From NCBI GenBank assembly GCA_947505245.1, contig CANNIZ010000015.1:1-64000 (forward strand): a stretch of DNA of 64,000 nucleotides. Reading direction: 5' to 3'. Within the stretch, counting starts at the first letter, position 1, and each line of letters opens with the position of its first letter. Source of the stretch: Pseudomonadota bacterium. GTDB lineage: Bacteria; Myxococcota_A; UBA796; GCA-2862545. A program made the translations under genes and the position numbers. The notes under the pieces were generated by a model, which worked only from the letters and a program-made list of their open reading frames with translations, was not told the origin of the DNA and searched no databases. This document shows, piece after piece, positions 13,419 to 47,496 of the stretch.

Positions 13419-13567
13419 GGCGCGATCTTACTCGACGCGCGCGTTAGGCTCCAGCGCGGAGGTACCCCACGCGCGCGGTCTGGCCCGATCCCCTCATCCC
13501 GTCGTTCGAAGAGCCCGTTCCAGCGCCGTCAAACGCGCTTGCGGTCCCAGACCTGCGCCGGCCGGAT

Positions 13568-14206
13568 GTGGCGCCGTTCGTGCCAACGCTCGAAGACCTG
13601 CTGCGCGTCACGGTCGACATCGCGCCGGCCGCCGGGAACGAAGCCCCCGACCGCTTCTTCGGGCCGATGGCCGAAGACCTCGAGCACCGCGTCCCCGCCC
13701 ACCATCGAGCGGCGGTCGTCGCGGTGGCAGCTGCGTGTTTCATGATCCCCGACGACGAAGCGATCGCGACGAACCGCACCCCGTTCGATCAATGGGTCCG
13801 CCGCAGCCCCAACCCGCCCGCCCGCGATCGCGCAGCGTTTCGCGCCGTCGCCAAGGCGCCGTGGGCGGTGTGGCGCATCACCGGGACAGACCCGCTGACG
13901 CTCACGGACGCCACGGACCTGTCGCCGGCCTTCCACCCCACAGGCCCCGTCGCGGCCGACCTCGCCGACGCGTTCGTCGCGCCGCAGGCCGGGCGCGCGC
14001 TCCTCGCAAGGCTGGTGCCCACGAAGGAAGGTTGGGCCGTGGCGTTCGGGCTCGTGCTGCCGGAGGTGCCGCCGATGGTACTCGTGCGCACCTGGGTCGC
14101 CGAGGTCGTCCACCACGCGAACGGCACACCGATCGAGGAGGCGCTCGCTTCGCACGGGCACATCCTGGTCCGCCGCGCCGTCACGTGGTGGTGGCGCTCA
14201 ACCTAA
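13568..14206 (+). CDS. Unknown protein with a partial copy downstream
   Basis: 212 aa from the GTG at 13568; no signal peptide. The C-terminal half is strand-rich (GWAVAFGLVLP, PMVLVRTWVAEVV, ILVRRAVTWWWR) and ends in a Trp cluster. Coding character continues upstream in the same frame for about 40 codons without any ATG, GTG or TTG (back to a TAG at 13445). A GGAGG at 13458-13462 is followed by an ACG, so a rare start or a mutated ATG is possible. The last 200 bp are 96% identical to a stretch at 16232-16430, on the far side of a three-gene cassette. Family not recognised. Confidence 0.65.
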   Translation: MAPFVPTLEDLLRVTVDIAPAAGNEAPDRFFGPMAEDLEHRVPAHHRAAVVAVAAACFMIPDDEAIATNRTPFDQWVRRSPNPPARDRAAFRAVAKAPWAVWRITGTDPLTLTDATDLSPAFHPTGPVAADLADAFVAPQAGRALLARLVPTKEGWAVAFGLVLPEVPPMVLVRTWVAEVVHHANGTPIEEALASHGHILVRRAVTWWWRST

Positions 14207-14256
14207 GACGCACCCGGTGCGACTCCTCGAAGGCGAGGTAGGGCGGGCAGCACAAA

Positions 14257-14733
14257 CTAAGCGTCGCGGTGGCCTTCGGGCCGAATCTCCCACCCGCTCA
14301 CGAGGCGCGCGAGGGCCTCACGAACACGCCGAAAGACGTTGGCGCTCGCGATGGCTGGGCTCGGTTCGACCTGCGCGTGGGCCGCGTTCTCGAGGTCGGC
14401 TGGCGGGTTTGGCTTATGAATGACGTCGAGCGCGTGCTGCGTCTCAACGGCATCGCCCTTCATCTTCGCGACGGAGCGGTCTCCGCGGACGGCGCTCGTG
14501 ACGAGCCGCACGACGCCGCCACGCTCCCAGCCCTGCAGGTTGCCGGGACCGCGCTGGGTCGCCACTGGATCGGGCCGCAACGCGCGACGATCCACCGAAG
14601 GTCGCATCGCCCGATCGTTGAATGCCGCGGGCTGCACCTTGAGCGCGCCGTCGTCCTCCACCTCGAAGCACATCTCGTCGCACGGAACGCGACGGAAGAG
14701 GACCTCGTCGTCCTCGACACGGGTCGGGTCCAT
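14257..14733 (-). CDS. Unknown protein, third gene of accessory cassette
   Basis: 158 aa, soluble. The N-terminus has DDEVLFRRVP, followed by a segment AFNDRAMRPSVDR, then a strand GGVVRLVTSAVR and a C-terminal NPPADLENAAHAQV. This series resembles, from memory, small uncharacterised bacterial proteins with an 'LFRRVP...AF.DR..SVDR...NxAHA' pattern that turn up in accessory islands. No catalytic residues can be named. It starts 3 bp after the stop of the 168-aa gene and is the last of three co-directional genes lying between two copies of the same 200-bp sequence. Confidence 0.68.
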   Translation of the reverse strand: MDPTRVEDDEVLFRRVPCDEMCFEVEDDGALKVQPAAFNDRAMRPSVDRRALRPDPVATQRGPGNLQGWERGGVVRLVTSAVRGDRSVAKMKGDAVETQHALDVIHKPNPPADLENAAHAQVEPSPAIASANVFRRVREALARLVSGWEIRPEGHRDA

Positions 14734-47200: not shown

Positions 47201-47404
47201 GCGGGCGACCTCGCGGCCGACGTGGCGATCGAGCACGAGCACGACGCGACCGAGCCCGCCGCGACCGAGCTCGGTCGCAGCTTCACCCCCGTCGTACCGC
47301 CCCGCATGCTCCGTCGGCAGCTCGTCGACGACGCCCTGGCCGTCGGCGCTTCCGCCTTCCGACAGGGTCTGCCACGTCTGATGCCGCTTGTCGCTCACAC
47401 CCAC
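44246..47404 (-). CDS. Ser/Thr protein kinase with WD40 repeats
   Basis: 1052 aa. An N-terminal Hanks-type kinase has the Gly loop LGRGGLGRVVLV, Lys69, the catalytic HRDIKPDNVM (Asp164) and the metal site DWGLAK (Asp182; DWG rather than DFG). A membrane segment follows at about 355-378, then a short coiled region and at least ten WD40-type repeats (VVHVWDLE, LVRVWDEAG, QLHVWDAAS, VYLWDTKT, SVNVWNWD, DLVRWNPAT, QVHVWDWA, RVAVWSAP), making one or two propellers in the periplasm or cytoplasm. The propeller probably senses or binds a partner and controls the kinase. Start at a GTG; an alternative is 6 bp further in. Confidence 0.93.
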   Translation of the reverse strand: MGVSDKRHQTWQTLSEGGSADGQGVVDELPTEHAGRYDGGEAATELGRGGLGRVVLVLDRHVGREVARKELLSNNPGLTASARFLREARVTACLEHPNVVPVYDLGSTADGRLFYTMKRIRGRTLRETLAVAKGVEGRLELLPHFVDACNAIAFAHASGIVHRDIKPDNVMVGEFGETLVVDWGLAKVRGEQEVADGAVDGLAPGRMLSFESGDWLRTQYGATLGTPAYMSPEQARGELDKIDERSDVWSLGAMLYEILAGHPPFAGESLESIVGKVREGQVPPIGLVTGAPPALCAIVDKALKADPAARYADAKLLARDVEAFLAGQRVAAYQYSFGEEVARWVRAHRELVAAALVGTVACGALSVVAFQNITAERDRAVVAEQALSIKEADTRMQLALALAKRAAERLDGLDAVSARALAARSLVMKETPEARGVLVSAASMRAPKLAWQTSVDVPCDALRVAPGGRWLACASTTVVHVWDLENAHAHHALGHGDTYGYGFSWAPDGRSFLLGGDAIVRWIDVESGAILRMLDNGPVAIATATLPNGDVVVGGDDGLVRVWDEAGTNAQVLAPTHGDSWVTAVAVSPDGLRIASIGNDKQLHVWDAASLRALPELDDGGRGGSSLAWGRGDRLASGDWIGDDDRVYLWDTKTGHVNAVRGSLAEVSSVVAPPNGDTVLSGAADGSVNVWNWDGSLRVRLPDAPSGYAVVGTSADGRTAFVSSADTVREWRLPLNDGLLRGHRRQVTDVQPLPDGSVLTISDDGDLVRWNPATSEVLQRSTIDADGLWGLVVSGDTIVVGSRYGNVYGLDAATFALRWTTPVGPGVNDLALSPDGASAVIADDGGVTRVTVADGVVAAKLASQTVEYASVAFCGDDLLAAANYAGRLLALDPVTLEVRQVLRAPAAGLADVSASADGKFAATADDEGQVHVWDWAQRHVTHTLTYGDESAEAIAFSPDGKWLVAGAGDGRVAVWSAPDFGLVARIPAHGTRLVNNLVFDGAGTMWSVGGDAVARPLLLAPLEQTATDAIAEVARDLGVDVVDGVVVPVAAP

Positions 47405-47445
47405 CCCATCGTCACGACCGGCACAGTCTATGTCATTTGGTGGCG

Positions 47446-47496
47446 AGGGAGACCTGCGTGTTCGTGCGGTACTCGACGGTGGAGGTGCCGTCGGCC
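47446..47496. repeat. 51-bp fragment of the 51.0-kb SRPBCC gene
   Basis: 51 bp identical to 51117-51167 for the first 32 bp and with four mismatches over the rest, encoding VEYRTNTQVSLA on the minus strand. It lies in the divergent gap between the WD40 kinase and the GT41 gene and has no start or stop of its own. The rest of 47405-47636 shows no gene. Confidence 0.8.

What the first reader, a model, noticed from the sequence alone, without database searches (positions are those of the whole stretch)
13445..47496. Window-wide pattern: at least five partial gene copies and dead ends
The 13.6-kb gene, the DUF1295 gene, the 35.9-kb membrane gene, the kinase tail and the SRPBCC gene each have a truncated or mutated copy elsewhere in the window, and a MYXO-CTERM tail stands alone. 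Such density suggests ongoing local duplication and decay, perhaps the way this genome grows and prunes genes.
Basis: partly seen in the sequence, partly recalled or inferred. Interest (0 to 1): 0.62.

Follow-up and report, generated by a model that had tools for sequence, protein, structure and literature searches.

The report
Gene-tail scars around inserted gene blocks
This stretch of an uncultured bacterium's genome really does hold five broken partial copies of neighbouring genes, but they look less like failed gene duplications and more like scars left where small blocks of newly acquired genes were slotted in just after existing genes.

Summary
Five partial-copy pairs lie at the stated places, 54-279 nt long and 86-96% identical, and an orphan MYXO-CTERM tail lies antisense inside the 3' end of an LtrA gene. 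By one rule, low-copy local fragment pairs number 5 in this 64 kb, 12 in 2.0 Mb of the rest of the genome, and 1 in 1.5 Mb of other bacterial loci. The window is about 13-fold above its own genome.

The interpretation (local duplication and decay) is only partly supported. Most fragments are 5'-truncated tails lying 2-4 kb downstream of the intact gene, in the same direction. Most homologies stop near the stop codon. Differences favour third codon positions, so the copies mostly diverged as working genes. Where tested, genes between intact gene and fragment are missing from nearly all relatives, while two intact genes are widespread. E. coli icd/icdC, displaced by element e14, has the same anatomy and substitution pattern.

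Best reading: scars of small acquired blocks that supplied a replacement 3' end and left the resident tail behind. No integrase was found in the blocks, and Ku was not found. The joining mechanism is inferred. No close relative was available to show an empty site.

The parts
13568..14206 (+). Intact gene X_A (212 aa, no Pfam match), the source gene of pair A; found in 20 of 21 family genomes
16230..16430 (+). Fragment A': 5'-truncated tail of X_A, 96.5% identical, one 1-nt frameshift, ends 12 nt before the stop position
14257..16043 (-). Block between X_A and its tail copy: three minus-strand ORFs without Pfam match; ORF 15240-16043 has no match in 62 other genomes of the order
10167..13418 (-). 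Three minus-strand genes (unknown, RCC1-like, protein kinase) lying between WYL-regulator gene 9180-10166 and X_A, which are direct neighbours in relatives: a further insertion, without a fragment
31112..32317 (+). Intact trypsin-like protease gene ending in a MYXO-CTERM tail
32321..32557 (-). Fragment B1: last third of a DUF1295 gene, 88% identical, 42-nt internal deletion; its stop codon lies 4 nt from the trypsin stop codon
42168..42962 (+). Intact DUF1295 gene; only 3 of 21 family genomes have it at E<=1e-40, and most of the best database relatives are actinobacterial
42938..44188 (+). LtrA gene; no other family genome has it at E<=1e-60, 65-74% identical in three genomes of another family of the order; its last 25 codons are antisense to a MYXO-CTERM tail and extend past the end of its homologues
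44113..44193 (-). Fragment B2: orphan MYXO-CTERM tail (27 codons with stop) of a trypsin-like gene, antisense inside the LtrA 3' end
35997..36245 (+). Pair C, longer copy: membrane-protein pseudogene with an in-frame TGA at 36156-36158 where relatives' frames are open
40134..40220 (+). Fragment C': second tail of the same membrane-protein gene
44246..47404 (-). Intact Ser/Thr kinase with WD40 repeats, the source gene of pair D
41364..41437 (-). Fragment D': last 75 nt of a kinase-WD40 homologue, frameshifted, 86.5% identical, downstream of the kinase beyond the DUF1295-LtrA block
51026..51508 (-). Intact SRPBCC-like gene (Polyketide_cyc2, below cut-off), the source gene of pair E; relatives in 13 of 21 family genomes
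47443..47496 (-). Fragment E': part 0.71-0.82 of the SRPBCC gene, 93% identical, just upstream of the kinase start
47637..50630 (.). Block between SRPBCC and its fragment: TPR glycosyltransferase-41 gene (+) and a methyltransferase gene (-); the former matches 1 of 62 other order genomes at E<=1e-100

Best explanation
The fragments are scars of separate insertions. A DNA segment from a related lineage carried a homologous 3' part of a resident gene followed by other genes. It joined the chromosome inside or beside that gene. The resident gene stayed whole because the incoming DNA supplied a replacement 3' end. The old tail was pushed to the far side of the new genes, where it decays. Shown: anatomy, density, codon-position pattern, and lineage-specificity of the blocks tested. 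Inferred: that homology-anchored joining (one homologous end and one illegitimate end, or a single crossover with a circle) did it. The DUF1295/LtrA/trypsin part is a more complex case in which two convergent genes were separated and each kept the other's tail.
For: A, C, D and E are all direct repeats 2.0-3.9 kb apart with other genes between, and the truncated copy lies downstream of the source gene in its own direction. The same anatomy occurs elsewhere in this genome: C3 90842-92245 (M20 peptidase; 290-nt tail copy 1.8 kb on), C1 232889-233449 (33-nt tail copy 1.2 kb on) and C17 55810-60000 (1.6-kb tail copy 3.2 kb on). Homology stops at -12 to +25 nt from the stop codon in A, both parts of B, C, D, C1, C3 and C17; E is the exception. 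Tail probes find intergenic copies, head and middle probes find none. Third-position bias: 30 of 49 differences in A, B, D, E (P 6e-5 against 1/3; P 0.011 against an assumed share of 0.44 if only one copy had been under selection). Genes in the blocks are missing from nearly all relatives: LtrA 0/20, DUF1295 2/20 and TPR-GT41 0/20 other family genomes, block-A ORF 0/62 order genomes; source gene X_A is in 19 of 20 and SRPBCC in 12 of 20. Yardstick: E. coli icd/icdC around e14 has a 165-nt tail with 12 differences falling 1/0/11 by codon position.
Against: No relative close enough to show an empty site: the one same-genus genome matches these genes at only 32-56% protein identity, and DNA hits are about 67-73%. 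E' is cut on both sides and does not reach the stop codon. In C both copies are dead, show no third-position bias (4/1/0), and a glycosyltransferase in the block is also found in relatives, so C may be an older duplication. Pair B is inverted. Absence counts used different E-value limits per gene. Neither the kinase nor the blocks at C1, C3 and C17 were tested for lineage-specificity. Only one of the five pairs (A) has a source gene shown to be near-universal in the family.
Confidence: 0.55

Rival explanations
1. One reading: neighbouring genes were duplicated locally (tandem or inverted), stayed functional for a while, and one copy then lost most of its length by deletion.
For: Pairs are local and nearly all direct (15 of 17 clusters in the genome sample), as tandem duplication gives. 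Third-position bias also fits paralogues that lived a while. Pair C and pair B (each site keeps one of two convergent genes whole) fit reciprocal loss.
Against: Intact local paralogues at similar identity are almost absent from the sampled genome, so the intermediate state is missing. Block genes show no remnant of a second copy. Homology stops near the stop codon instead of running to random breakpoints. Only tails, not heads, are left in intergenic DNA. Block genes are lineage-specific where tested.
Confidence: 0.25
2. Degenerate site-specific integrative elements of the e14/icd kind: a recombinase inserted each block at a gene 3' end, and the recombinase gene was lost or acts from elsewhere.
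For: Same anatomy and substitution pattern as icd/icdC (PMC11148124). Preference for 3' ends. Serial tail copies at C17 resemble repeated use of one site, and an IS630-like transposase lies there.
Against: No integrase or transposase found among the window genes scanned, though the block-A ORFs are unidentified. Blocks are only 2-4 kb. No shared sequence at the junctions of the different sites beyond chance-level matches. The 5' ends of the tails fall at different places without a common core.
Confidence: 0.12
3. Assembly artefact: the contig of this probably metagenome-derived genome joins segments of co-occurring related strains, so that an allele of the same gene appears twice.
For: The genome is in 139 contigs and looks like a metagenome assembly. 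Identities of 86-96% are what related strains would give.
Against: Fragments are frameshifted (A', D') and abruptly truncated next to unrelated sequence, which a join at a shared k-mer would not create. The same anatomy recurs at several other contigs.
Confidence: 0.08

Closest known systems
E. coli e14 prophage in icd with displaced tail icdC
   Same: Intact gene keeps its length through a replacement 3' end; 5'-truncated old tail lies downstream in the same direction; homology ends at the stop; differences mostly at third positions (1/0/11 in 165 nt; PMC11148124)
   Different: e14 is 15 kb and carries integrase and excisionase genes; here blocks are 2-4 kb with no recombinase found
Homology-facilitated illegitimate recombination of incoming DNA (Acinetobacter, Pseudomonas stutzeri, pneumococcus; PMC3240628, PMC2884548)
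   Same: Explains additive insertion with one homologous end, no recombinase needed, small segments
   Different: Described from laboratory transformation and conjugation; here only the end products are seen and the process is inferred
Small variable segments of bacterial genomes (PMC2884548)
   Same: Short insertions attributed mostly to illegitimate recombination; 10-18% flanked by direct repeats
   Different: There most repeats were under 30 bp; here they are 54-202 bp diverged coding tails

Membership tests
e14/icd-type integrative element with alternative 3' end | Displaced 3' gene tail downstream of the intact gene, direct orientation | tested here: met
   A and D fully, C for a dead source gene, E for a part not reaching the stop
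e14/icd-type integrative element with alternative 3' end | Differences between tails mainly at third codon positions | tested here: met
   A 1/1/5, D 2/2/6, E 1/0/3, B 7/5/16; not C (4/1/0)
e14/icd-type integrative element with alternative 3' end | Recombinase encoded in the inserted segment | tested here: not met
   No integrase or transposase domain in block genes with Pfam matches; the block-A ORFs have no match
e14/icd-type integrative element with alternative 3' end | Identical core (att) sequence at both ends | tested here: inconclusive
   First identical runs at the 5' ends are short (about 3-15 nt) and not shared between sites
Homology-facilitated illegitimate recombination product | One homologous junction and one joint with little or no homology | not testable with these tools
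   Needs donor and empty-site sequences; closest relatives too distant
Non-homologous end joining capture | Ku protein in the genome | tested here: not met
   PF02735 not found in the own genome (94.6% complete) or 14 relatives; control rings in B. subtilis
Local gene duplication followed by decay | Copies start identical and the dead one changes evenly over codon positions | tested here: not met
   Third-position excess P 6e-5 against 1/3; P 0.011 against an assumed one-sided selection share of 0.44; pair C alone fits even change

The most novel reading that the evidence does not exclude
This lineage has a recurrent, recombinase-free way of adding 1-4 kb gene blocks directly after conserved genes, each block supplying a replacement 3' end, so the genome carries a readable fossil record of gene gains; one such event built a new C-terminus for LtrA from the antisense strand of a MYXO-CTERM sorting tail.
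Probability: 0.2. Interest if true: 0.72.

Novelty: new variant of a known kind. Interest (0 to 1): 0.45.

Why it matters
If the scar reading holds, displaced gene tails mark gene acquisitions without needing a close relative: they point to the insertion place, and the divergence between the two tails measures how far the donor was from the host. That would make the question of how genomes such as those of Myxococcota take up single genes testable from one assembly. It also corrects a natural misreading, in which such fragments are counted as failed local duplicates.

Tried and rejected
DNA searches in relatives gave no synteny across the scars. DUF1295-LtrA as a known cassette: LtrA is not near DUF1295 in any of 80 loci from other genomes or in G001 and G002, so no. 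LtrA tail as evidence of an LtrA relic at 32 kb: rejected, because that stretch is the trypsin gene's own tail. A shared element at all junctions: none found. An IS630 3' end next to the C3 tail copy was seen but is not repeated at the window sites. End-joining capture: Ku not found. tRNA sites: none in the window. Fragments at C22 and C27 lie at contig ends and were not used as examples.

Full report
What was checked. The window is positions 1-64000 of contig C15 (95,683 bases) of a 5.5-Mb, 139-contig genome, 69% G+C. MYXO-CTERM tails (sequence) suggest Myxococcota. Apart from repeat-rich MopE-type genes, one short tandem repeat and a 74%-identical pair of kinase-gene stretches, nothing else in the window repeats at that level.

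Is it more than chance? One rule (same contig, 0.5-12 kb apart, 45-450 nt, at least 82% identical, low copy) gave 5 pairs in the window, 12 in 1.996 Mb of the rest of this genome, 1 in 1.25 Mb of 80 loci from other bacteria and 0 in 0.28 Mb of loci from the same family. Window against own genome: P 5e-5, about 0.004 after allowing for 86 windows. Own genome against the other loci, like for like: P 0.011. The comparison loci were not random, since they surround DUF1295 or other chosen genes. Of 17 clusters in this genome 15 are direct.

Anatomy. In A and D the fragment is the last part of an intact gene, placed 2.0-2.9 kb downstream of it in the same direction. In E it is part 0.71-0.82 of the gene, placed downstream. 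In C the source gene is itself dead. A' and D' carry a one-base frameshift. On the minus strand the order is: SRPBCC gene, block with a TPR-GT41 and a methyltransferase gene, SRPBCC fragment, kinase, orphan MYXO-CTERM tail, block with LtrA and DUF1295, kinase fragment.

The DUF1295 case. At 32 kb the intact trypsin-like gene and a DUF1295 remnant face each other with stop codons 4 nt apart. At 42-44 kb DUF1295 is intact, LtrA follows it, and the last 25 codons of LtrA are antisense to a trypsin-type MYXO-CTERM tail that keeps its own reading frame. LtrA homologues end about where this added part begins. So the two sites share the junction of two convergent genes, each site keeps one gene whole, and LtrA sits in the junction at the second site. 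LtrA is in no other genome of the family at E<=1e-60, but is 65-74% identical in three genomes of another family, which suggests horizontal gain.

Duplication or insertion? First, codon positions of the differences are A 1/1/5, D 2/2/6, E 1/0/3, B 7/5/16 and C 4/1/0. The first four together are 11/8/30. Even change is excluded (P 6e-5). Selection on one copy only, for which I assumed a third-position share of 0.44, is disfavoured (P 0.011). The copies mostly diverged as working genes. Second, homology ends within -12 to +25 nt of the stop codon except in E. Third, of 200-nt tail, head and middle probes of about 1,170 genes, only tails had low-copy intergenic copies nearby: three direct downstream, one inverted. 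Fourth, genes between the copies are rare in relatives, while X_A is present in 20 of 21 and SRPBCC in 13 of 21 family genomes. The limits used differed: 1e-5 for X_A, 1e-10 for SRPBCC and the block-A ORF, 1e-40 for DUF1295, 1e-60 for LtrA, 1e-100 for TPR-GT41.

Other sites in the genome. C3 (M20 peptidase tail; small membrane gene and GH25 gene between), C1 (33-nt tail; Pyridox_ox_2 and Uma2 genes between) and C17 (1.6-kb tail; an IS630-like transposase between, plus a further 36-nt tail copy) have the same anatomy.

A yardstick. In E. coli MG1655 the e14 element sits in icd. The displaced 165-nt tail icdC differs at 12 positions, which fall 1/0/11 by codon position, and both end at the stop codon (PMC11148124). 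Anatomy and substitution pattern match. The recombinase does not: no such gene was found in the window's blocks.

Mechanism. Homology-facilitated illegitimate recombination, known in three transformable species and reported for E. coli conjugation (PMC3240628; PMC2884548), or a single crossover with a circle, would give this product. Ku was not found, which disfavours end joining. This step is inferred.

Limits. The gene calls come from a script written here. 37% of the genome was sampled. The genome is probably a metagenome assembly, and an error at single junctions cannot be excluded. No close relative was available. Pairs C and E fit the model less well than A and D.

Verdict. Its reading as duplication and decay is only partly supported; insertion scars with replacement gene ends explain more of the evidence.

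Noticed in passing
window 9180-14206: WYL-domain regulator gene 9180-10166 and X_A are direct neighbours in several family genomes, but here 3.3 kb with three minus-strand genes lies between them, without any repeat at the ends.
   Followed up: partly
window 51838-52016: Three tandem 61-nt units (84-86% alike) with internal inverted symmetry, just upstream of the ALO/FAD oxidase gene 52130-53734.
   Followed up: no
window 32803-35781 and 53744-55855: Two genes with MopE-type putative metal-binding repeats (129-nt period), about 69% identical; over 100 further DNA matches in the genome suggest a large repeat-protein family.
   Followed up: no
window 25504-25589 and contig C15 81.2-83.0 kb: Dispersed intergenic repeats shared with contigs C3, C4, C9, C10, C14, C18 and C27, in both orientations.
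   Followed up: no
G000 C17:47148-60000: One gene's tail occurs three times in a row (long gene, 1.6-kb copy, 36-nt copy) with an IS630-like transposase between: possible serial insertion at one place.
   Followed up: partly
G000 C18:11076-12802 and C20:34418-36141: A two-gene segment (beta-lactamase-like and an outer-membrane-type protein) occurs on two contigs; on C20 it lies between direct repeats beside ParE/ParD-like genes.
   Followed up: no
window 42938-44188: The LtrA C-terminus appears to have been extended by about 22 residues read from the antisense strand of a protein-sorting tail.
   Followed up: partly
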